Of a stretch of 64,000 nucleotides of DNA, positions 3,895-61,660 are shown piece by piece. The stretch comes from Ectocarpus siliculosus (Eukaryota; Sar; Phaeophyceae; Ectocarpales; Ectocarpaceae). The position numbers were made by a program, and so were the translations under genes. The notes beneath the pieces were generated by a model. The model was not told the DNA's origin. It worked only from the letters and a program-made list of their open reading frames with translations, and did no database searches. Location: positions 899,087-963,086 of the forward strand of contig FN649759.1 in assembly GCA_000310025.1 (NCBI GenBank). The letters are read 5' to 3'. Every line of letters starts with the position of its first letter. Within the stretch, counting starts at the first letter, position 1.

Positions 3895-6128
3895 TCACGC
3901 CACTCGGTCCGTCTCTTCTCGTTTGCTTTCTTCCCTCGCCGTCTCGTCCGTCTCCTGCCCCCCTCCCGCCCCGTTGGTTGTTGGCTTGTGGTCTCGTTTG
4001 AGCGCTCGTTGTCGGCTAGCCTCTTCTTCCTTCTTGTGCCAGGAGGTCATGAACCTCTCAGCTCCCTGCAGCACCGCCGCATGCCAGGGTACTCCCCCCT
4101 CCACCTTCGCGGCTTCCGTCCACTTTAACTTCGGTGCCGTGTCTTTCGGTACCGGGACTCCGAGACAACCTGGATCGGTTTTCGTAGATCCGTGGTCGCC
4201 CCCCAATGCCTTCAAGTCGTCGAGCACACACTTCGGCCAGTTCTGTTCCTGTCCCCCCGTACGTCGCTTCTCCCCCCCCGTCAGTTCGCCGAGCACCAGT
4301 CGTTTCGGGAGTCGCCCGTCCGGCTGCCTTGCCAATGATCCCGCGAACGGTAGGCGTCGTTGTCGGATCGTGGCTTCAACGCTCTGGCATTCGACCCTCT
4401 TCAGCGTCTGGGCGAAAAATGCCGGTAGGTGTCTTTCTTGCGCTTGTACCCGATGATTCGGAGAAGCAGTCGGTGATGTATCGGCCGCAGCGTCTGGTAG
4501 TGGCCGCTGAGTGGTGACCATGTCATGCAGCCGTACAGCAATGCCTCCATCGCCTCCGCCTGGAGGAGGCGGATCTTGAGTCGGAATGGCGCTTTCGGTC
4601 TGTCGAAGAGCTCCCGGCCATATCGCCTGAGGCACGCCCACGCTCCTCTGCTCCTTGTAGTTGATCTCCCAGGTGAGGTCGCCATGTTCGTTGATCAGGC
4701 CACCAAGGTACCGGAACTCGGTCGTCGGGGCGTATTTCTGTCCCGCGGCTTCGATGGTCAGCGGTGGAGGCGGGGGGGGCTGTGGTGTTGTAGTCGGCTT
4801 GTCCTTCGCGCGCTTCAGGAGTGTCTCCGTCTTCTTCTCCGATACCGTCAGCCCGAACTCCCCGAACACCTCAACGATGATGGTCATCATTCTCGCCAGT
4901 CCTTCTGCAGACCTCGATACGACGCCGGCATCATCGGCATAGAGCATCCCCCATACTGCCCTCCGTACTCGGTCAAGGGGTGTCTCCTCCGCCCCGCTTC
5001 CGTCTTCCCTTCCTCCAAGCACACCAGGCTCCGCAGAACAACACCATCGTCGCTGAAGCGGATGACAACGACCTCGAGGACCTCGGCGAAGAAGATGTTG
5101 AACAGAAGTGGGGATAGCACACATCCTTGTCGCACGCCCTGTGTCACGAAGAACCAGTCCGATAGTTCTCCGTCGTCCATGAGCACCCGGGCCCGCATTC
5201 CATCATGGAATTGGCGGATGACTTTGATCAGCTTCGCGGGAATCCCAGCCCTGGCCAGCACTTTCCATAGCATCTCTCGGTCCACCGAATCATACGCCTT
5301 CTTCAAGTCGATGAAACACATTTAGAACGGTATTTTCTTTCTCCGCCCCAGCTCCTGGAGGCGGCGCACGACGAACAGCATGTCGACGGTGGATCGCCCG
5401 GGTCGAAATCCGCACTGTTCCTCCGGGAGGATGTTGTTGGCTTCGCAGAAGGCGCTTAGACGGTTGGTAATGATCTTGATGGGGACCTTGCCTACGTGAG
5501 ATAGTAGCGAAATCCCCCTGTAGTTGTTACAGTTGGACCGGTCACCCTTCTTGTACAGCACCTTGATGGTTGCATCCTTCCACTCTTGCGGAATATCTCC
5601 TCCGTTTCACACCTTTACGAGGATGGTATAGAGGTACCCCAGGGCGAAGGGTTCGTCGTCATCGATTTTGAGCAACTCGGCAGGGAGGGAGTCATGGCCG
5701 GGTGCCTTCCAGTTCCTGACGCCTTTCGTTGCCCGTTTCACCTCCTCGAGTTCTGGCACCTCTCCCAACCGTTGAGTGCCACGTGTCGCTGGCCGCTGCG
5801 TCCCTCGTTCGATGATGTCTGGGTTCAGGGTAGGGGATGTGGTGTTGAGCAGGGTGCTGAAGAATCTCGCCCACCGCTGGAGGATGTCGTCCCTGTTCCG
5901 GAGTAATACGCCGTTCTCATCCACGACGAACTGCTGTCCCCCCGCTTGTCTCCCGCTGAGGCCCACTGATCTCTTGAGGTGTTGGTACAGTCCTCGCATG
6001 TCGCGTTCTTTGTAGATTGCTTCGAGTTCATTCACATATCCGTCCAGGTGGGCATAAATGCCCGTTTCGACTGCTGTAGCCACTCCCTTACACGCTGCTT
6101 TCAGAGCCCTCCACGTTGCTGAGTTCTA
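3895..6128 (-). pseudogene. LINE reverse transcriptase remnant
   Basis: The RT motifs lie in order. There is a linker with NWKAPGHDSLPAELLK, then [41 protein letters not shown] (first catalytic Asp), [15 protein letters not shown] and YADD (catalytic Asp pair). A thumb-like part follows, with YLGGLINEHG and a Leu-rich C-terminal segment. Three in-frame stops and at least three frame changes interrupt it. Two of the stops, at 5607 and 5322, sit inside otherwise conserved motifs, so the element died by point mutation as well as by indels. It would have copied element RNA into the nicked target site. Confidence 0.92.
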
Positions 6129-48984: not shown

Positions 48985-49236
48985 ATGCACTACACAGGTG
49001 GAGGTCGACCCCCCTTCCCCAAAATGTCGGATGCCCTCGCCGCCTTGTGGAGGCCTTGACAAGGTCGAACACCTTGGAGAAGACAACCAAGGCCTAAAAA
49101 ATACCTCGATTTCTCCCCTTTCGAGGCCTTGGTTGTCTTATCCAAGGTATTCGACCTTGTCAAGGCCTCAACAAGGGGGCGAGGGCATCCGACATTGTGG
49201 GGAAGGGGGGTGGACGTCCACCTGTGTACTGCTGTA
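48985..49236. mobile_element. Hairpin MITE (family C), about 115-bp arms
   Basis: The left arm (48985-49100) and the right arm (49120-49236) are near-perfect reverse complements. Both contain ACACAGGTGGA at the outer end, then CCCCTTCCCC, ATGTCGGATGCCCTCG, AGGCCTTGACAAGGTCGA and AGACAACCAAGGCCT next to a loop of about 20 bp. The high arm identity suggests a young insertion or active correction between arms. There is no coding capacity. Confidence 0.85.
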
Positions 49237-49905
49237 CTTCTCTTCTGGCGAGGAAATCCTACTACTGCCGAGAGGGCTTTCTGATCACGTATATACATCT
49301 GGTTACGCGCGAATACAGCGAAAACTCCCAGATGAGATCACCCAGAACGCGCTCTGCTCGTTGTTTGCATGCGAGCGGACCCCAGTCTAGCTTCTTTTCC
49401 TCTCCCCAAAAAATGAGCCGGACGGGACATTGGCGGGAGGGGGGAAAGGCAGAGGGCGTAGAACCTGCGTTTCCTCCCGTCTGAGCATGGAATAAAACTA
49501 CCGTTCTTGTGGTGAACGATGCATGGAGGGGGTAAAACACCTGTCTGTGGGCCCGACCAGGTGACAGGATGTGGCCATAGGAAACACGCCCCCAAATACA
49601 ACCTAACAAACAAACAAAGCGTCGTCTGCGGTGAACTTGGGCAGTTGACGGGACTGGTTGTCATGCTCATCGACGATGGCCCCCCACACGCCTTGGATGT
49701 CTTAGAAAGCATACTGGTGTGTTTTGAGCTACTGCTGTAGGAGGGATATATGTGAAAGGAGGGCGGCGACTCGCCTTGTGGGGGGTGCCACCTGTGCAAA
49801 GGGTACACACATACCCGTCCAATACAAGTAAAAGTGGATTCTTGGTGGTGGGATGGGGGACCAATAGGGGACCCCAACAAACTGTTGGAAGAACAACAAA
49901 AATAA
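49237..49905. other. Non-coding flank of the foldback element
   Basis: Both strands carry frames of 60-180 codons without motifs. No gene is called. Confidence 0.4.
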
Positions 49906-50267
49906 CGGCAATGCTATTCGCTCCACCGGTGGAGTCAGTTCTTATTTGCTCCACCAGGCAGATCTCCACCCACAGAGCTTCAATCGACCTCAAACCAATT
50001 ACATCGTGTAGGTATGGTCTACAGCTATCTGCAATGCTGCTTGCAAGCTACAATCCGACTATTGGCTGCAGAGATATGCTGAAAAAGGGGGTTCCGCAGC
50101 ATGTCAGGAAGCAGTAATGGTCTGGAACCTCCGTCCCCACCGCTCCAATTGCCCTCAAATTTTTTGCATGGTGTTTGCACGGTCCATCCCGTTTTTTTAA
50201 GCTTTCATACACTCACTTCCGATGTTTTCCCGCAGAGATATGGTCAACCGACGGGGTTCCCCAGTTT

Positions 50268-50892
50268 TTAGGGGGGGGGGGGGGGGTGTACTCATAGTCG
50301 TGCATGCCGTAGTCGTTTGACCATTGACCTCGCATCCCTACAAAGCCGGGACGGAGCACGCCGGGTTCTCACCGGACCAGGCTCTCACATCACCAAGCGC
50401 AAAGCGCCGTGAGGTATTTGGCGAGTCGCATGAAGGGTGAGCTGCATCCTGCTAAGGGTGTTCGGCATCTTGTGCTTACTTCCTTGCGTACGGATGACAG
50501 CTACGTATGACTTAATTTATTTTCTGGTGCTTTCACTTCCAGAGACAGTTGTAAGCACTGTGTAACTGCCTCGAGGAAGCTTGACCATTTTAACACAACG
50601 TGGTGCGATCATCCCCCGTTGCGCGGAGTGAGGGTTCTCGCCCGCACAACATGATCTACTCGACCACCATTATGGTTACCGCCAAAAAAAAAAAAAAACG
50701 AGGTAAAAAAAAAAAAAACGGTAACCTGGTTGCCGAGTTCACGAAGTGAACTGGCTTATTTTACAACGTCGTTGCCAAGCGACGAAAACCCAATCCCGAT
50801 GGCAAACACCGAGTGGGGGGCTTGTTTTACAACGTCGTTGCCAAGCGACGAAAACCCGAACCCCGATGGCAAACACCGAGAGGGGTGCAGTA
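50268..50892. mobile_element. Nested repeat element D, copy 1 (inside left foldback arm)
   Basis: It interrupts the left arm between CCCCAG and TATCTAGG, which are adjacent (as GCAG-TATCTAGG) in the mirrored right arm. It starts with a run of about 15 G, then ACTCATAGTCGTGCATGCC, and ends with two copies of a 64-bp unit containing TTACAACGTCGTTGCC and CGATGGCAAACACCGAG. A second copy lies at 60.88-61.58 kb. No open frame suggests a protein. Confidence 0.8.
50757..50886 (+). repeat. 64-bp minisatellite of element D, two copies
   Basis: Two head-to-tail units, each with ACAACGTCGTTGCCAAGCGA followed by CGAAAACCC, CCCGATGGCAAACACCGAG and a G-rich spacer. Confidence 0.9.
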
Positions 50893-50943
50893 TCTAGGGG
50901 GGGGGTAACTGGCAATAATCCCGCTATACCTCCCGTCACATAG

Positions 50944-51660
50944 CTGAACCACGCCTAACTCGGCCTGCATCGTGTTGGCACGGCTCACAGCTATCATTCA
51001 ACCCATCCTCCACCCCAAATCGGACCAGTGGGTGCAGAGAAACGCCCCCGCGCGGGGGCTCAGTGACTCAAGGGCCGGTGGAGCAGATAAGCTTATCTGC
51101 TCCACCAGGTCAACTGTACTGTTTGTCCTACTACGGCTTGTATTGTGTCGGCACGGCTCACATCTATCATTCAAGCCATCGGACACCCCGATCGGACCAG
51201 TGGGTGCAGAGAAACGCCCACCCACGGGGGCTCACGGACTCAAGGGCCGCTGGAGCAGATAAGCTTAACTACTCCACCAGGCCAAACTCTATCTGGCACT
51301 GTTTGTCTTACGAAGACTTGCCTTGTGTTGGCCGGGCTCACAGCTATCATACAAGCCATGGGACACCCCGATCGAACCAGTGGGGGGAGAGAAACATCCA
51401 CCCACGGGGGTTCAGTGACTCAAGGGTTGGTGGAGCAGATAAGCTTAACTACTCCACCAGGCCAAACTCTATCTACTAGGTGCTGTTTGTCTTACGAAGA
51501 CTTTCATTGTGTTGGCCCGGCCCACAACTATCATACAAGCCATCGGGCACCCCAATCGGACCAGTGGGTGCAGGGAAACGCCAACCCACGGGGGCTCAGC
51601 GGCTCAAGGGCCGGTGGAGCTTACTGCTCCACCTGCCAAACTCTATCTACACCGGGCGCT
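50944..51660 (+). repeat. Foldback left arm: four tandem units of about 175 bp
   Basis: Each unit runs from CTCCACCAGG through CTGTTTGTCYTAC, GTGTTGGC, GGCTCACAGCTATCAT, CGGACCAGTGGGTGCAG and CCCACGGGGGCTCA to GGTGGAGCAGATAAGCTTA. The joint between units is itself a palindrome centred on AAGCTT, perfect over 30 bp at about 51078-51107. Confidence 0.9.
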
Positions 51661-51939
51661 GATCGTCGTACGACGACTGTGACAGGATAGGGGCACCCCC
51701 TGGATATGGGAAATTTTCTCAAACGGGCTCCCCTCCGGGCCAACGGACACTCCTCCCCACCCACCCCGACTAACGGGCACACCCCCCAATAACGCCCCCC
51801 CTCCTGGTGGTTTGGGGCACTCCGCCTCAACTAACGGCACTCTCCGTCAACAACGGCCACCCCCTCCTCCATTGTCGGTACTCCTCTCTGCTCACGGACA
51901 CCTCTTGGCGCCGTGTTCGGACGGTGCAGTGCTCTGTAT

Positions 51940-52790
51940 GTAGTATACACTGTATTTCCTGGACACAGACAATGTATTCTCTGATCACATACACTGTATT
52001 TGTTGATCAGATACGGCAAACACTGTATTCCCTGAGCAGATTCACTGTATTCCCTCATCAAGATACACCGTATTCCCTCGCTCGTTTCACTGTATTCCAG
52101 AATCAAATGCGTTGTATTCCCTGGTCAGGATCACTGTATTTCCTTATCCGATACACAGTGCTCGTCGTACTTTTCACTGTATTCCCTGAGTAGATTTACT
52201 GTGTTCCCTCATCAGATACACCATATTGCCTCGTTCGTTTCACTGTATTCCCTCATCAAATACACTGTATTCCCTGGTCAGGATCTCCGTATTCCCTCTT
52301 CAAATACACTACCGTATTCCTTGTACTTTTCACTGCATTCCCTAATCAGATTCAATGTATCCCTCATCAGATGTACACACCGTGGAATGCAGTGAATCTG
52401 ATGAAGGAATACAGTGTATCTGATGAGGGAACACAATGAATCTGCTCTGGGAATACAGTGTATCTGATGAGGGAACACAATGAATCTGCTATGGGAATAC
52501 AGCGTATCTAATCAGGGAATACAGTGTATCTGACGAGGGAATACGGCGATTCTGATAAGGGAATGAAAGGAATCTGATTAGGGAAACATTGTGTCTGATG
52601 AGGGAATACAGTGAATCTGCTCAGGGAATACAGTGTATCTGACGAGGGAATACAGTGTATCCCCTCAGGGAATACAGCGTGTGTGATCTGGGAATACAGT
52701 AGTATCCCGTGACAGCGTAGAATGTGATCAGGTAATACAGTGAATATGACTTAAGGATACAGTGAATGTGACGAGGAAATGGCTCCACAC
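51940..52790. repeat. Foldback centre: mirrored short repeats
   Basis: About 440 bp of short units built on CACTGTATTCCCTSATCAGAT are followed from about 52380 by the same units in reverse complement (GGGAATACAGTG). Units are about 30-35 bp. This forms the tip of the hairpin. Confidence 0.85.
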
Positions 52791-52799
52791 AGAGGCCAC

Positions 52800-53470
52800 A
52801 TATCTGCTCCACAGGCCATTGGGCGATGAGTCCCCGTGGGTTGGCGTTTCCCTGCATCAACTGGCCCCATTGGGGTGCCCGATGGCTTGAATGGTCGTTG
52901 TGAGCCGGACCAGCACAATGAAAGTCTTCGTAAGACAAAAAACGCCCGTTGTAGATAGAGTTTGGTCTGGTGGAGCAGTTGAGCTTATCTGCTCCACCGA
53001 CCCTTGAGTCACTGAACCCCCGTGGGTGGATGTTTCTCTCCCCCCACTGGTTCGATCGGGGTGTCTGATGGCTTGCATGATAGCTGTGAGCCCGGCCAAC
53101 ACAAGGCAAGTCTTCGTAAGACAAACAGCGCCAGATAGAGTTTGGTCTGGTGGAGTACTTAAGCTTATCTGCTCCAGCGGCCCTTGAGTCCGTGAGCCCC
53201 CGTGGGTGGGCGTTTCTCTGCACCCACTGGTCCGATCGGGGTGTCCGATGGCTTGAATGATAGATGTGAGCCGTGCCGACACAATACAAGCCGTAGTAGG
53301 ACAAACAGTACAGTTGGCCTGGTGGAGCAGATAAGCTTATCTGCTCCACCGGCCCTTGAGTCACTGAGCCCCCGCGTGGGGGCGTTTCTCTGCACCCACT
53401 GGTCCGATTTGGGGTGGAGGATGGGTTGAATGATAGCTGTGAGCCGTGCCAACACGATGCGGGCCGAGTT
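52800..53470 (-). repeat. Foldback right arm: four tandem units, inverted
   Basis: These are the same four unit types as in the left arm, in reverse order and orientation. The correspondence is unit by unit: the unit with the perfect AAGCTT palindrome is outermost-but-one in both arms. The arms were therefore copied as a whole rather than expanded independently. Confidence 0.88.
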
Positions 53471-53898
53471 AGGCGTGGTTCAACTACAATGTGACGGGAG
53501 ATATAGCGGGATTATTGCCAGTTACCCCCCCCCTAGATACTGCGGAACCCCGTCGGTTGACCATATCTCTGCGGGAAGACATCGGATGTGAGTGTATGAT
53601 AGCTTAGAAGAACGGCATGGACCGTGCAGACACGATGCAAAAGATTTGAGGTCAATTGGAGCGGTGTGGACGGAGGTTCGAGGCGATTACTGCTTCCTGA
53701 CACGCTGCGGAACCCCCTTTTTCAGCATATCTCTGCAGCCAATAGTCGGATTGTAGCTTGTAAGTAGCATTGCAGATAGCTGTAGTCCATACCTACACGA
53801 TGTAATTGGTTTGAGGTCGATTGAAGCTCTGTGGGTGGAGATCTGCCTGGTGGAGCAAATAAGAACTTACTCCACCGGTGGAGCAAATAGCATTACCG

Positions 53899-55769
53899 TA
53901 GAAATAAAGAAACGAAACGGAGAAAGGCGAAAGAAGCGGCTACAGCAGTAGACGAATGTAATACTTGGGATAGAGGAGAGAGTTCGCCAATCCCATGCAG
54001 CATAATATATGTACATACACACACATGGAGAAAGTTCTTTGCCTGCCGTGAACTCCTTTTTATGTTGGCGAGCAATGTTCCTTGAGGCCATCTCGTGTAC
54101 TCTCGAAAATGCGCGGCAGCGGCAAGGGCGGCAATCGCGATAAACCGGCGACAACGCTTCGCGGACCCTTGGAACCAAAGATACTACCGAACTAGGCTAG
54201 CTATCCCAAGAGCCGCGGAAAGGGGAGGGACGCGGAGAGAGGGCGAAGGAGAGATATGGGCGAAGGCGTATGTAGTACGCGCTTCCTCCGTGGTAGAGGT
54301 GGCCTACCCAACTGTATACTCAGTTTGACATGGAAAGCGTCCTCAGTTGGTGGCTTGCGGCTCTCTCTTACAGCACACACCGACAACATTCATTATGAAC
54401 ATGGACGAGATGGAAGGGGGGCAGGAAAAAGTCGACTTGTCAACGCAAAGAGGAACTGTTGCACATCTTGTCAACTTGTCAAGGTTCGACGTAGACCTGT
54501 GTAGCCGCGTAGATGCACATCACACCACCGAACCATGTACTTCAGCAAGACCAGGGGCAGCGATCGCGGCAATTGACGTGTGATCCGGAAACCCTGCTTC
54601 ACATGCGGTCCGAAAACACTGCTCAACTGAAAGCAACCACACAAAAAACCGAGAGAAACAAAAGAAAAAATGGCCTGCATATGCGACGTAGATACAGTAT
54701 ATATTCCGAACGTTGTAATGAACGACAGTGACGATGGTTGTTGCTGTCCGTGCACGTTTTAGGGGATAAGTGATGAGTACGGCTGTCCAACATTACCAGA
54801 CAGAGACACCGTACATACCCCCGAGATGCCCGCTGTGGTGCATCACAGCAACAAACCATCAAGGTGGCAATGATGGAAAGCCCCGCTCACTCGCAAGAAA
54901 AAAAAACACATTTGTGATGCAACCGGACGGATGTTCAACCGCCTCGTTCGGGGTGCGGCATAGATAAGGCCGACTTAACGGCCACAGGAGGCGGAAGCTC
55001 CTCACACTCGGGGAGGGGTGATGATCTGCGATTCCCCACCGACGAATACTCGAGAATCCGCGAAATTTGCATTGTAACTCGAGATCAGTATTTCGACATG
55101 AAACATGGATATTGGTCTGAGAAACTGACAACAACCGTTCCGGTGTCAACTCCAAGAATGCTTAATTGGAACGAGCGATTGTCTATCTTCATGGCGATTC
55201 AAGGACCATGTCGCGGTCGTTACAAACATCCAGCAATGGCATATATGCCCATGGACTTGCCCGAAGCCATCACCACGCTTTCATCCCCACCCGCCCCCCA
55301 ACGCCTGCAGGTCGGCTCGTTTCGTCTCTCTGGGACAGACACAAATCCATGTTGAATAAAGGCTACACACCCAACGGCGACCAATCCTTGTGAAATGGGG
55401 TCCTCACCTCCATCTCCGCAGGTTAAATGACCAGGGACTAGAGTCAATCAAACTGTAAATCGGTGTACGGCATTTCACAACGTCACGAAAGCTCGGTGCC
55501 GGAACTGATGTATCCACCACAATGGATTACCCGAGACGTCGTCCGTGATACTTGCACTACTGGCTACCAACTACCGCCCTTTTGGGCATTTTTTGTAGCG
55601 CAGAAAATACGAAGTCGTAACAACCAGTGGCTACAAATCGACGTGCCTGCGCGTCAGAGGCTCCCTCGCTGACACGCATGGAGATTACAAAAACTCCTAT
55701 CCATAAACGCCCTGTTCAATGCCGGACACAGGAGGATTCGCACAACCGGGGGCGTGTCTCCCAGACGGT
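53899..55769. other. No gene recognised
   Basis: Several frames of 60-100 codons, no motifs, no splice chain. Confidence 0.4.
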
Positions 55770-57110
55770 TCATAGCAGACGAACCTCGTCCCGAGGTACA
55801 CTTTGTAAGGAAACCGGCCACACAACTTGGGCGACGGGCTGGTTGAATTTATTCCCGAACGATAGCTGCCGCAGGAACGCCGGCCACACGACGTCGTCGA
55901 GAGGTCGGTTAAAGCGAACCCCGAACGATAGCTGCTGCAGGGAGGCCGGCCACACGACTGTGGCAATGGGCTGGTTGAAACGATCCCCAAGCGATAGCTG
56001 CTGCAGGAAGGCCGGCCACACGACGTCATCGAGAGGCTGGTTGAAGCTAACCCCGAACGATAGCTGCTGCAGGGAGGCCGGCCACACGTGTTCGTCAACA
56101 GGCTAGTCGAAACAATCTGCAAACAATAGCTGCTGCAGGGAGGCCGGCCACACGACTTCGTCAACAGGGTGGTCGAACAGCTCTCCAAACGATAGCTGCT
56201 GGAGGGAGGCAGGCCAAACGACCTCGGCGATGGGATGGTTGAAGCAAAACCCGAACGATAGCTCCTGCAGAAAGACCGGCCACACGACCTCGGCTAGAGG
56301 CTGGTTGAAACTATCTCCAAACCATAGCTGCTGCAGGGAGGCCGGCCACACGACATGGGCGATGGGTTGATTGAAACCATCCCCAAGCACTAGCTGCTGG
56401 AGGGAGGCCGGCCACATGACTTCGGCAATGGGATGGTCGAATTTGGACCTGAGCGCCAGATGCTGCAGGGACGCCGGCCACACGACCTCTTGGATAGGTT
56501 GATTGAACGCCCTCCCGAACGACAGGTGCTTCAGGGAGACCGGCCACGCGACTTCAATAATGGGCTGATCAAAGTTGTGCTCGAATGTCAACTTCTGGAG
56601 AGCTGCCGGCCACACAACCTCAGCGATGGGCTGGTTGAATTCGTACCCGAAGTCCAGCTGCTGCAAGGAGGCCGGCCACTCGAAGTTGATGATGGGCTGG
56701 TTAAAGCGCCATGCAAACGATAGCTGCCGAAGGGAGGCCGGCCACACAACCTCAGCGATGGGCTGGTTGAAACTATCTCCAAGCGATAGATGCTGCAGGG
56801 AGGCCGGCCACACAACCTCAGCGATGGGCTGGTTGAAACTATCTCCAAGCGATAGGTGCTGCAGGGAGGTCGGCCACGCGACTTCGTCAAGAGGCTGGTT
56901 GAAGAAACACCCGAACGATAGATGCTGCAGGAGGGCCGGCCACACGACCTCGGAAAGAGGCTGGTCGAAACAATCTCCAAACGATAGCTGCTGCAGGGAG
57001 GCCGGCCACGAGGTCTTGTTCACTGGCGTATCCAACTCCAACACCAGCCAATTGAGCTTCTTGAGCCAAAACATCGATCCTAGGCTTGCTGCAGATGATT
57101 GTCCATTCAT
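55770..57110 (-). pseudogene. FNIP-like repeat protein with one in-frame stop
   Basis: From ATG at 57110 a short leader (MNGQSSAASLGSMFWLKKLN) opens into 18-19 units of exactly 22 residues (66 bp). The consensus is WPASLQQLSFGxxFNQPIAEVV. This is the spacing and signature (FNQP) of FNIP repeats, a leucine-rich-repeat relative known from Dictyostelium and giant DNA viruses; they form curved binding surfaces. Units 3 and 4 are identical in protein, so the array is still expanding. One TAG at 56103-56105 replaces the usual Gln codon of FDQP in unit 14. The same frame then continues for five more units to a second stop. The result is a 335-residue truncated product, a readthrough case, or a base error. 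The frame is open upstream to 57500 without an ATG, so an upstream exon is possible. No F-box or other partner domain is visible. Confidence 0.82.
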
Positions 57111-60050
57111 GCGCTGATATGATGATCCAGACCGACGCTCGTTGGCAGAACTCTGCGGCAGAACCTCCGTCGGGAGTCCCCATGTTAAACCAAAAGCCTG
57201 CACAGCCGGCACGCGACTCACGATGCAATCCTCTCGACTGCGTTTGCTGGCTGTGGTGTGTGGTTGGCGAGGAGACCACAGGCTAAGGGGCGTTTGTCCA
57301 TCCACTCGGACGTGCAAGGTTGGGACACATCTGCATGCTCCACAAAACTCCAGCGACACACGCTGTAGCTCCAGCGTAGATGCATACCAACGCCTTTTCC
57401 CCCCATCGTAAGTCTGGTTCAAGGCGACGATGAAGGCGTCCAGGCACTCGCTTCGTCCTGAGACAGTGGGAAGCAGATACACACGTGGGAATGCCCACAA
57501 TAGAAATGTTGTGGGACCTGAGAAAGGTTCTGGATGCGCAGCTGGTAGGTTAAAGTCGGATGCAGGGAAGAAAGTCAGAGTGGAGGGGGGTCCTCCCAGT
57601 CGAACAACAAGACGACGGCCCCCATTTCACTTGCCGACATCAAGCCTTGGTCGCCAGACAAAGTAGCGGTGCCCCTTGATCGATCACATGTTCTTTCTTC
57701 GAATATGTTCATATTCGACACCCCTCCTTTTACCGCTAGTTGCGTCGGGGGCAGATATCCAATTTTAATATTTAGGCCTCTACAACCCTAAAAAAAACGA
57801 ACAGCAACTTGGGGTCTTCGGTAATAAATGTGATGAAGTGAGACTACTTGTATGGCACACTGAAGCTATTCTTGAAAGAGAAGCCAAGACCAGTAGGCTC
57901 TCCGACACCACTTCCGGTGATGCTGGGGCGATATTTCCATCTCCAAAACCCGGTAATCAAACCAACCACTCTCGGATGGTGTGCCTGTATCGAAAAGGAT
58001 GACCTCTATCCCCAGCAATCAAGACTTGTCGTTCCATTCCAAACGCTCATTTTATCAAGAGGAACAGCAGAAACAAACCTTAAGCTCCGTACAGTATTCT
58101 ATGGGATTGGTGTTCTTTGCCCGGGTTAGAGTTTGATGTTTTCGAAGCAACCCTTCTGTCTCTGGCGGGAAAGTCATGTGCTTCGCCCGGAAATCAGTAC
58201 CGGCAACAACAAAGTGTATTGTGAATGCACCTCTTTCGCCTCAAGGAACACGATATTTCCGGGGCCTTGCTACAGTAGCCAGCCCCCGCCATGTTTCGAC
58301 ACAGAATCTGGACGACAAAATGGATTACAGCTCGACCGAAGCGCACGGTAGCTCGTTCGCGCGCTTGTGTGCGTTTTTGATGATACATAATCGCCCGTGT
58401 TGTGCCGCCCGACCCATGCAAGTCTTAGCAGACAAGAGCGAACATGATGCGTGTTGACTATCATAGATTTGTCCAAGCAGGGCTGGGGACCACCGGGCAG
58501 GACGTAGACACGGTGTCTTCGTTCCTTTCGACAGTGCGCTTGTTGGCCTGGTGGCGCCTCTACAACATCGTAGTTGCCGAGCCCCCCATTAGACACACCG
58601 GTGCAGGGGCCAACATGTTTCTGTGCAAGGTTTGTCCTAAAAAGTTTGTAAGAATCCTTCCCGCAAGGTACAAAGCAATGAGAAAGACGTTCGCTGACCC
58701 AACAGCAAACGAGACCCAATTTGATTCCACTCGACGACGGGCGGCTGAAGTTAGAACGTTCTGGGCTGTCTTTAAAAGCCAGTCATCGGGTGGCAAGCCT
58801 TTTCAGCTGTCACTGCCTGATGGCAGACTTCCAACAAGCTTGAGCCTTGCCAGCATCATCGTCCGTTCTTTGGCACACACGGTGGCCATGTCATCTGCAC
58901 ATTCAACTCGAAATCTAGATATGTTCGGCGTGTGATGTTGGAGTCCCGAGGGACACTCCGAAATAAGTATTGATCGAACAAGTCACAGCCAATTCACTTG
59001 CCGCCCGACCAAACTACTTAATGGCTTTCCGAGACAACTCAGAAGATTTTTCCCTTCAGACAGACGGTCAAATATCGAGTGTGGGTGGGATCAACATACA
59101 TTTCTGTTGGCTGGTCGTTAGCGGTGGAGGCCGTTCGGGTGATATTTTCCCTTCTGTTTCCAGACGGCTGTTCGACTTTGAGAGTCTCCATGTTCCTTGA
59201 AGCAGCCGGAACATTGTTTCCAGCACAGCAGCAAGCAGTAGCGGGTAGAACAGCCAAGAATCCTTGCTTGGTCACAAGAACCCGTTCACAGCGGTTTCGA
59301 AAACGCACGTCTGTACTCCGTGGTTGCGCTTGCTGCACGCTGGAAGAACAACAACACGCCCGCGAGAAAAGTCTGAACCGCTGAGTACAGCGGGTGGGCG
59401 ATTCAAGTACCACTGTAGCAATCTATCTGAGAGGTGGGAGGCGTTGTGGCTCGAATCGCTGCTGATGGATGTGGTGTAGAGGTTAGTTGTCTGTCGGTCG
59501 GTCCGATTTGCCTTCTCTTCAACTCAGAACAACACCAGCCGCCTTTGTTGGTTTCCTCTTTTCTACTGTCATCGACTTCCACGTTTGTGCCGCTGTGCTG
59601 CTGGTGCTGTTTTATATTGCTGCTCGGGTCTTGGCTGCTCGTATCGCATTGTTATACCTCCTGTGGCTCTCACCCTTCGTGAGGCACAGGCAAACAAACG
59701 CTGTGGTACATAGCTAGTACCCACACATCGCAGCACACCCGCACGGAGTCGGAACGTGGGCCGAAAATAGTAGAACACAAAGTGGCGACAACTAGGCCTG
59801 CACCCAGGTCGCTGCGGACGTGAGTTCGTTTTTTTGAAAAATTTTATTCCGTTGACCTGTCTGTTTGATTTGTTCCTCCCCCGTCGTGGGTGCAATACGT
59901 ACGTGTATGTACTGTGCGTGATGGTTTGGCTGTGCGTGCACACGTGCATACGTGTATCCATCTTTCCTTAGATCTTTGAAAAACACACACATGCGCGCTG
60001 TTCCTGTCTGGATTCATTCGATACGTCCCACCTTCACATCCATTCTTCGT
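57111..60050. other. Region without a recognised gene
   Basis: The largest candidate is the plus frame 58444-58935. The rest are short frames on both strands, often overlapping. Confidence 0.4.
58444..58935 (+). CDS. Hypothetical 163-codon frame
   Basis: An ATG-started frame with normal-looking composition, including FLSTVRLLAWWRLYNIVV, a CKVCPKKF pair of cysteines and a Ser/Thr-rich end. There are no recognised motifs, no upstream exon and no splice site at its ends. The opposite strand is also open. It is retained only as the best frame in a 3-kb gap. Confidence 0.18.
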   Translation: MMRVDYHRFVQAGLGTTGQDVDTVSSFLSTVRLLAWWRLYNIVVAEPPIRHTGAGANMFLCKVCPKKFVRILPARYKAMRKTFADPTANETQFDSTRRRAAEVRTFWAVFKSQSSGGKPFQLSLPDGRLPTSLSLASIIVRSLAHTVAMSSAHSTRNLDMFGV

Positions 60051-60837: not shown

Positions 60838-61660
60838 TCGCACGTCCGAACACCCATAGGGTATGTTTGGGGGGGGGGGGGGACTCATAGTCGTGCATGC
60901 CGTACATTGACCTCGCATCCCTACAAAGCCGGGACGGAGCACGCCGGGTTCTCACCGGACCAGGCTCTCACATCACCAAGCGCGAAGCGCCATGAGGTAT
61001 TCGGCGTGTCGCACGAAGGGTAAGCTGCATCCTGCTAACGGTGTTCGGTATCTTGTGCTTACTTCCTTGCGTACGGATGACAGCTGCGTATGACTTAATT
61101 TATTTTCTGGTGCTTTCACTTCCAGAGACAGTTATAAGCACTGTGAAACTGCCTCGAGGGTGCTTTATCATTTTAACACAACGCGGTGCGATCATCCCCC
61201 GTTGCGCGGAGAGAGGGCTCTCCACCCCGCATAACATGATCTACTCGACCACCATTATGGTTATCGCAAAAAAAAAAAACAGAGGTAAAAAAAAGACCGG
61301 TAACCTGGTTGCCGAGTTCACGAAGTGAATTGGCCTGTTTTACAACGTCGTTGCCAAGTGACGAAAACCCAATCCCGATGGCGAACACCGAGGGGGGGGC
61401 TTGTTTTACAACGTCGTTGCCAAGCGACGAAAACCCAATGCCGAAGGCAAACACCGGGGGGGGCGGCTTGTTTTATAACGTCGTTGCCAAGTGACGAAAA
61501 CCAAATCCCGATGGCAAACACCGGGGGGGGCGGCTTGTTTTACAACGTCGTTGCCAAGCGACGAAAACCCAAACGAGGGTTTGCGGGGGTGATAAATGAG
61601 TGTGTGATAAAAAAAGGGGGTGAGATAGCGCGTACGAACACCCACAGGGTTTGTTTGGGA
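60838..61660. repeat. Element D, copy 2, between two short direct repeats
   Basis: The body (60883-61580) aligns with 50290-50886 over its whole length, including CCTACAAAGCCGGGACGGAG, AATTTATTTTCTGGTGCTTT and TACTCGACCACCATTATGG. It is flanked by a direct repeat, CGAACACCCAYAGGGTWTGTTTGGG, at about 60847-60872 and 61637-61660. The left flank leads straight into a long G run. This helps define the true ends of the element. Confidence 0.78.
61334..61576 (+). repeat. 64-66-bp minisatellite of element D, nearly four copies
   Basis: Three full units and one partial unit of the same minisatellite as at 50757-50886, with G-run spacers of variable length. Copy number differs between the two element copies (2 versus about 4). 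Confidence 0.9.

What the first reader, a model, noticed from the sequence alone, without database searches (positions are those of the whole stretch)
49906..53898. Foldback element whose arms are built from four tandem ~175-bp units
Seen directly: left and right arms are reverse complements block by block, including single-copy parts, four tandem units per arm and a mirrored centre of short repeats. This is the foldback (FB/Galileo-like) architecture known from animals. I know of no described example in brown algae. Unit order is conserved between arms, so arms are copied as wholes, perhaps by gene conversion. If transcribed it would give a long double-stranded RNA, so it could also be a small-RNA locus (inference).
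Basis: partly seen in the sequence, partly recalled or inferred. Interest (0 to 1): 0.82.

Follow-up and report, generated by a model that had tools for sequence, protein, structure and literature searches.

The report
Foldback Mutator-type transposon, non-autonomous
This is a real jumping gene with no enzyme of its own, shaped like a giant hairpin, and its relatives in the same genome suggest that a Mutator-type enzyme recognises a short family-specific word repeated along both arms.

Summary
Confirmed: 49906-53898 is a foldback element with 374-bp outer inverted repeats, four ~180-bp units per arm and a mirrored centre of 22-bp repeats. Not mirrored: a 285-bp block (51660-51944) and a ~620-bp unrelated repeat inserted in the left arm (50280-50897).
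It is a transposon. Forty genomic matches to its end were scored; 10 of 16 two-ended elements examined carry 9-bp target duplications; five paralogues of its host repeat run through the insertion point.
It encodes no transposase. A related family (M) has similar ends, perfect 9-bp duplications in 3 of 3, and a Mutator (MULE) domain between long repetitive arms. Best reading: a non-autonomous Mutator foldback element moved in trans.
Two new observations. In four families the 14-bp word at each end recurs inside elements of its own family only, at up to two mismatches (at three, the A and M words overlap); this suggests transposase-binding sites. Arm homogenisation is graded: outer ends match the partner arm, the innermost unit matches the same side of other elements, so arms are not copied as wholes. 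Small-RNA activity was untestable; the host is unverified.

The parts
49897..49905 (.). left 9-bp target-site duplication (7 of 9 match the right copy)
49906..50279 (+). left outer terminal inverted repeat, begins CGGCAATGCTATTCGCTCCACC
50280..50897 (+). insertion of an unrelated high-copy ~600-bp repeat at a poly-G tract, left arm only (ends approximate within the G run)
50944..51117 (+). left unit 1 (outermost), with the 30-bp palindrome GGTGGAGCAGATAAGCTTATCTGCTCCACC
51118..51297 (+). left unit 2 (borders approximate)
51298..51481 (+). left unit 3 (borders approximate)
51482..51658 (+). left unit 4 (innermost, partly truncated; borders approximate)
51660..51944 (+). single-copy block on one side only; gives the element a polarity
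51945..52372 (+). 22-bp tandem repeats, left half of the centre
52384..52780 (-). 22-bp tandem repeats, right half of the centre, inverted
52801..52946 (-). right unit 4 (innermost; borders approximate)
52953..53132 (-). right unit 3 (borders approximate)
53133..53310 (-). right unit 2 (borders approximate)
53311..53486 (-). right unit 1 (outermost; borders approximate)
53525..53898 (-). right outer terminal inverted repeat
53899..53907 (.). right 9-bp target-site duplication

Best explanation
A non-autonomous DNA transposon with foldback arms, belonging by descent to a Mutator (MULE) lineage. Shown: it is an insertion flanked by a worn 9-bp duplication, one of many copies, with no transposase of its own; a related family in the same genome carries a MULE transposase domain between long, internally repetitive inverted arms, with similar ends and perfect 9-bp duplications. 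Inferred: a MULE transposase acting in trans binds the word ending in GCTCCACC at the terminus and again in the palindromes of the tandem units, synapses the two arms, cuts at CGG/CCG and inserts with a 9-bp stagger, mostly in A/T-rich DNA. Inferred: the two arms repair each other from the outer ends inward, which keeps the outer repeats alike and leaves the innermost unit unconverted.
For: Copies: 40 scored matches of 111 candidates for the outer repeat, the window's own two included; 75 places match the 23-base end pattern at up to 3 mismatches against 0 for the reversed pattern (by eye at least six of them are family B). Duplications: 10 of 16 two-ended elements match at 7 or more of 9 bases, 6 of them at 9/9, against 16 of 240 and 0 of 240 mismatched left/right pairings; the match peaks at length 9. 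Uninterrupted sites: 5 of 5 fetched paralogues of the host repeat (of 23 listed besides the window) align through the junction. MULE link: the outer repeat of A aligns with the arms of two M copies above all 300 shuffles; M carries PF10551 at E=1e-7, over its cut-off, and 9/9 duplications in 3 of 3. Family B shares the terminal CGGNAATGCTATTT with A (44 matches, 0 control matches), and two of its copies (L015, L017) hold a stretch related to the C-terminal part of the M gene. Word evidence: 4x4 matrix with 38/15/12/4 on the diagonal and 0 in all 12 other cells at up to 2 mismatches.
Against: No copy of the window's own family was found with a transposase: M-gene queries hit none of the 31 fetched family A loci nor the window element at E 1e-3, and by eye none of the 31 genomic matches to an M C-terminal frame lies inside a family A element that I could delimit. 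M's terminal word differs from A's, so M need not be the enzyme that moves A. A's outer repeat aligns best with an internal module of the M arm (positions 222-299), not with its terminus, and A's tandem units do not resemble M or D above shuffles (9, 57 and 36 of 300 reach the score). At 3 mismatches the matrix is not clean: A's word occurs 21 times in M, more than M's own (18), and M's word 4 times in D. A and B arms are at best weakly alike outside the terminal 14 bp, B and M arms not at all. 6 of 16 two-ended elements (6 of the 12 of family A) lack a match of 7 or more. The matrix held one D and three M copies, and 10 of 31 family A elements.
Confidence: 0.83

Rival explanations
1. The same structure, but moved by a transposase of another superfamily (for example P-type as in Galileo, or hAT/KDZ-type enzymes, which I recall as making 8-bp duplications); the resemblance to the MULE family is convergence on the ends.
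For: No cognate transposase inside family A. Galileo shows that foldback arms with four long direct repeats can go with a P-type enzyme (PMC3688188, passages).
Against: Duplication match peaks at 9, not 7 or 8; A's outer repeat is significantly similar to M arms; families B and D contain remnants of the M gene's C-terminal part. The KDZ search found nothing in any genome, so it is uninformative.
Confidence: 0.1
2. The tandem units are not binding sites; they persist as by-products of slippage or unequal exchange, and the within-family identity of terminal and internal words only reflects that units and termini were duplicated from each other within each family.
For: The palindrome is only modestly more conserved than the rest of the unit (0.92 against 0.87 over 49 units). 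Outer repeat and unit resemble each other within family A. At 3 mismatches the words of A and M overlap.
Against: At up to 2 mismatches all 12 off-diagonal cells of the word matrix are empty, although A's outer repeat and M, and M and D, are homologous, so termini and interior carry the same changed word in each family. In Galileo such internal sites bind the transposase domain in vitro (PMC3688188, passages).
Confidence: 0.33
3. A small-RNA or long-hairpin RNA locus selected as such.
For: A transcript across both arms could pair over some 920 bp (sum of the two arm pairs; inference). Intact Ectocarpus TEs are reported to be associated with small RNAs (PMC12477816, abstract).
Against: Dispersed copies with target duplications and uninterrupted paralogous sites are explained by transposition alone; no transcription evidence exists here. 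It could be a secondary effect.
Confidence: 0.05
4. Assembly artefact or a local inverted duplication.
For: Palindromes are hard to assemble (general knowledge).
Against: The same architecture recurs at other loci, with 9-bp duplications and uninterrupted paralogous sites.
Confidence: 0.01

Closest known systems
Tm1, Mutator/Foldback family of root-knot nematodes (PMC3169594; abstract and passages read)
   Same: Foldback-type composite inverted repeats, 8-10 (mostly 9) bp duplications, MULE transposase in few copies, non-autonomous majority, derivatives keeping only sequence 3' of the MULE domain
   Different: Tm1 repeats are ~14-bp motifs, not ~180-bp units; Tm1 ends carry asymmetric 7-bp motifs; no comparison of terminal and internal words was seen in the passages read
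Galileo of Drosophila (PMC3688188, PMC3573991; abstracts and passages read)
   Same: Long TIR of 1.2 kb with four long direct repeats in Galileo-G; secondary transposase sites inside two of these repeats; defective copies without transposase
   Different: P-superfamily transposase; the related enzyme here is MULE; duplications here are 9 bp (7 bp for Galileo is recalled)
Tetris of D. virilis (PMC4079207; abstract, introduction and start of methods read)
   Same: Apparently non-autonomous foldback element with ~220-bp tandem repeats inside its inverted repeats
   Different: Its repeats also form kilobase satellite-like arrays; I did not search for such arrays here
Plant MULEs with tandem long TIRs (PMC3310237; abstract and passages read) and FARE of Arabidopsis (cited in PMC3169594; not read)
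   Same: Mutator elements whose ends are multiplied in tandem, mostly non-autonomous
   Different: Whole TIRs are duplicated in the tomato cases, rather than a ~180-bp internal module with a palindrome
DNA/MuDR entry of the Ectocarpus TE survey (PMC12477816; abstract, section 5 and passages read)
   Same: Survey of a brown-algal genome of similar size (200 Mb): one MuDR family, 56 copies, and 51 unclassified DNA families
   Different: 'foldback' and 'mutator' do not occur in its main text; I could not check whether this family is among its unclassified ones

Membership tests
Foldback-type transposon (structural class) | Long inverted repeats making up most of the element | tested here: met
   375 nt at 94% plus 548 nt at 97%; in other copies
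Foldback-type transposon (structural class) | Internal tandem repetition inside the inverted repeats | tested here: met
   180-bp period in both arms, 22-bp period in the centre
Foldback-type transposon (structural class) | Dispersed copies bounded by target-site duplications | tested here: met
   uninterrupted paralogous sites
Mutator (MULE) superfamily | Target duplication of usually 9 bp (size as stated in PMC3169594) | tested here: met
   peak at 9; window copy itself 7 of 9; 10 of 16 elements at 7 or more
Mutator (MULE) superfamily | MULE transposase encoded by the family or by a family sharing its ends | tested here: inconclusive
   None in family A. PF10551 in family M, whose arms resemble A's outer repeat but whose terminal word differs
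Mutator (MULE) superfamily | Mobilisation by a MULE transposase | not testable with these tools
   needs a binding or transposition assay
Galileo / P superfamily | 7-bp duplication (recalled) | tested here: not met
   match peaks at 9 (0.72), 0.52 at 7
Galileo / P superfamily | P/THAP transposase | not tested
   no search with a P/THAP model was made
Small-RNA locus | Small RNAs mapped to the arms | not testable with these tools
   no RNA data held

The most novel reading that the evidence does not exclude
A clade of Mutator foldback elements in which each family carries its own recognition word, written at both termini and again along the arms, and in which lineages have changed the word at all these sites together. 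The arms would then be multi-site docking arrays whose code changes as a unit, with arm-to-arm conversion running inward from the cut ends as the copying mechanism and stopping before the innermost unit.
Probability: 0.4. Interest if true: 0.68.

Novelty: new member of a known kind. Interest (0 to 1): 0.5.

Why it matters
Whether the tandem repeats inside Foldback and Phantom arms act as transposase-binding sites was stated to be untested in 2013 (PMC3688188, passage). Here four families with different words give a natural specificity test: each cognate protein should bind its own word and not the other three. The graded homogenisation (outer repeats by element, innermost unit by side) shows where arm-to-arm conversion stops and constrains how long inverted repeats stay matched.

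Tried and rejected
1. Autonomous copy of the window's family: the two long loci (C77, 12 kb; C134, 7.4 kb) turned out to be copies with nested insertions; L009 holds a reverse transcriptase fragment. None of the 31 fetched family A loci matched M-gene queries at E 1e-3.

2. KDZ transposase: no match in any genome including controls, so uninformative.

3. The first MULE loci fetched (L018-L020) have other ends (TTATAAAAGAGAACC..., with GGGGCGCGAATATTTGC outermost in L019) and were rejected as partners; L021-L023 showed no inverted repeats in the stretch fetched.

4. I first took the ~620-bp insert, present in both arms of L011 at the same place, as proof that arms are copied as wholes (note). 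Rejected: its two L011 copies are less alike (0.88) than L011-left is to the window's (0.95); independent insertions at a poly-G tract fit better. It is a very common repeat (40 scored of 2310 candidates).

5. One search used start coordinates one base off for L003 and L040 and seven for L027; one search corrects them. Left out because one end was incomplete or not set: L042, L007/L008, L032. Left out: L003 and the L031 block-side unit (innermost layer), the L026 right unit (outermost layer); its TIR layer uses 5 elements, the tree all 13 two-ended ones that I had set up. Left out: 21 of 31 family A elements; L016 (14-mer only, no partner end seen) and L017 of the six B candidates. Its shuffles were single-base, five per cell.

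6. By raw identity the picture is weaker than by tree: the partner arm is the closest sequence for both arms in 9 of 13 elements; not for WIN right, L001 right, L006 right and both arms of L040 (L006 left is a tie).

7. No search of other eukaryotes was possible with the tools at hand; viral contigs were not scanned. The odds of the best explanation and of the novel case were lowered slightly on rechecking, because of the three-mismatch overlap and the lack of unit similarity between A and M or D.
Full report
Check of the observation. The window lies at G000:C34:899087-963086 of an unnamed 189-Mb genome. Searches confirm a palindromic element at 49906-53898. It has outer inverted repeats of 374 bp (94%), unit arrays mirrored over 548 nt (97%), a 180-bp period with 3.7 copies per arm, and a centre of 22-bp repeats whose halves are inverted copies. 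Two parts are not mirrored: block 51660-51944, and the stretch 50280-50897.

It is one of a family. The first 395 bases give 40 scored matches of 111 candidates at 78-100% identity, the window's own two included. The 23-base end gives 75 matches at up to 3 mismatches and none for the reversed control (at least six are the related family B by eye). I fetched 31 loci (L001-L011, L024-L043; L007 and L008 cover one element), so 31 elements with the window. Outer repeats, tandem units and the one-sided block recur in the same order; the block was found in 19 of 31 elements, and in none of them on both arms. Several loci hold only an outer repeat (L024, L025, L033, L039). Complete copies without large nested inserts run from 2.4 to 4.4 kb.

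It inserts. In 16 two-ended elements (12 of family A including the window, 3 of M, 1 of D) the nine bases outside each end match at 7 or more positions in 10 (6 of 12 in family A), and at all nine in 6. Mismatched left/right pairings of the same flanks do so in 16 of 240 and 0 of 240. The mean match peaks at length 9 (0.72, against 0.42-0.54 for lengths 5-8 and 10-13). Six elements have fewer than 7 matches. The flanks of 11 family A elements are A/T-rich (nine-base sites 88% A+T, window 47%). The window's left flank is a repeat with 24 places in the genome, itself included. The five paralogues fetched all align through the junction of the joined flanks at 69-77% identity, four over more than 300 bp of the right flank and L050 over 40 bp. 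So the sequence is an insertion, not an assembly artefact.

What is inserted in it. Bases 50280-50897 match a high-copy repeat (40 scored of 2310 candidates, full-length ones mostly 97-99%). Other family A copies (L011 in both arms, L030, L040) carry it at the same poly-G tract. In L011, the one element with it in both arms, the two copies are less alike (0.88) than L011-left and the window's (0.95), so independent insertion at a preferred site fits best.

Related families and the enzyme. Family B shares the terminal CGGNAATGCTATTT. Of six B candidates fetched (L012-L017), four show inverted arms in the stretch held; L016 and L017 do not. A protein fragment inside B (L017:4104-4757, no Pfam match) matches 70 places. 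Four of these lie 1.2-1.7 kb downstream of, and on the same strand as, places found with the MULE model. Three of those four loci were fetched (L046-L048). Each is a ~6.2-kb element with arms of 746-820 nt at 95-99% identity, themselves internally repeated, ending CGGCACGGCTAAACACCCCACC and flanked by perfect 9-bp duplications. An open frame of L048 holds PF10551 at E=1e-7, 32.7 bits against a cut-off of 27.6. I call this family M. Family D (one copy, L049) ends CGGTGTGTCTAAATCCCCCCCC, has ~194-bp units, an 8/9 duplication, and matches only the C-terminal frames of M. The outer repeat of A aligns with M above all 300 shuffles, M with D likewise, A with D in one of two A copies tested (3 of 300 reach the score for the window's). 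The A-M alignment joins A's end to an internal module of the M arm. A's tandem units do not resemble M or D above shuffles; A and B arms are at best weakly alike; B and M arms are not. B is tied to M by the protein stretch and to A by the end.

A family-specific word. The last 14 of the terminal 22 bases differ between families (CTATTTGCTCCACC, CTATTTACGACACC, CTAAACACCCCACC, CTAAATCCCCCCCC). I counted them in element interiors with 60 bp trimmed from both ends of each sequence given (10 of 31 A, 4 B, 3 M, 1 D; for L013-L015 the second end was arbitrary). At up to two mismatches each word occurs only in its own family: 38, 15, 12 and 4 times, and 0 in all 12 other cells; single-base shuffles give 0-0.4. 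At three mismatches the diagonal holds for A (95), B (26) and D (12), but in M the word of A is as frequent (21, shuffle 1.8) as M's own (18), and M's word occurs 4 times in D (0.6). In the window the core GCTCCACC occurs 13 times, against 0.1 expected; its places are the two ends and the units. The palindrome is a little more conserved than the rest of the unit (0.92 against 0.87). I read the units as transposase-docking repeats. This is inference; the experimental parallel is Galileo, where internal copies of the site bind the transposase domain (PMC3688188, passages).

How the arms stay alike. In a tree of outer repeats the two arms of one element are exclusive sisters in 11 of 13 two-ended elements (10 with strong support); L005 is unresolved and L040 is not. 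By raw identity the partner arm is closest for both arms in 9 of 13. Units group by position: a clade of 18 rows holds all 16 outermost units and two second units, a group of 16 rows holds innermost units. The innermost units behave oppositely to the outer repeats: those of the arm without the block form one clade (100/98) in 8 of 9 elements, apart from those of the other arm; the exception is the truncated unit of L003. Identities: outer repeat, own partner 0.970 (5 elements), same side of other elements 0.916, opposite side 0.915; unit 1, 0.958 (7), 0.940 and 0.931; innermost unit, own partner 0.854 (7), same side 0.930, opposite side 0.854. Conversion between arms therefore covers the outer part and has not reached the innermost unit. 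That conversion starts at the cut ends is inference.

Comparison with what is known. Foldback elements with Mutator transposases and 9-bp duplications are described (Tm1, PMC3169594; FARE as cited there). Long units inside foldback arms are known from Galileo-G and Tetris (PMC3688188, PMC4079207). MULEs in stramenopiles are known (PMC6446971, passages). The Ectocarpus TE survey lists one MuDR family and 51 unclassified DNA families, and its main text does not contain 'foldback' (PMC12477816). Searches of the open-access library for foldback elements in algae gave no paper for two term sets, one unrelated listing, and nothing on the subject among the 20 of 1,349 listed. So the element is a new member of a known kind. 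The multi-family change of word and the graded arm conversion are the parts that I have not seen described in what I read.

Limits.

Noticed in passing
window 56106-57626 (-): Open frame of 507 aa with FNIP repeats (PF05725, E=1.6e-66, 11 stretches); it overlaps about three quarters of the 66-bp tandem array 55814-57009. An array of 66-bp period with a similar unit by eye lies beside family B copy L012 at 4451-4881.
   Followed up: partly
window 49000-49220: A separate 221-bp near-perfect hairpin repeat (folds at -187 kcal/mol, z -23), with many genomic copies (40 scored of 76 candidates). It looks like a MITE.
   Followed up: partly
window 49000-49220 and G000:C45:302552-302773: The hairpin repeat lies within 1 kb of a family A end both in the window (685 bp) and at C45 (87 bp). 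Both may favour the same host repeats; not tested.
   Followed up: no
window 50280-50897 and 61332-61572: High-copy ~600-bp repeat ending in 66-67-bp tandem units; the same units form an array at 61332-61572. Its size and number recall the ~600-bp RTEX-N1 of PMC12477816; not tested.
   Followed up: partly
L018-L020: A second MULE group with other ends: 26 places share the score of 52.4 bits with the MULE model; TIR alignments of 95-118 bp; different ends. Perhaps the single MuDR family of PMC12477816.
   Followed up: partly
L049 3482-6121: Family D element matching only the C-terminal frames of M; six places with nearly the same score (C36, C30, C9, C140, C489, C110) suggest spread of a truncated form.
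   Followed up: partly
L048 2819-3529: Open frame upstream of the MULE domain in family M, conserved at 87-90% in L046 and L047, no Pfam match.
   Followed up: no
window 49906-50279: The window's left outer repeat has diverged about eight times as much as its right one (branch 0.061 against 0.0078; L001 is similar, 0.045 against 0.005). No cause found.
   Followed up: no
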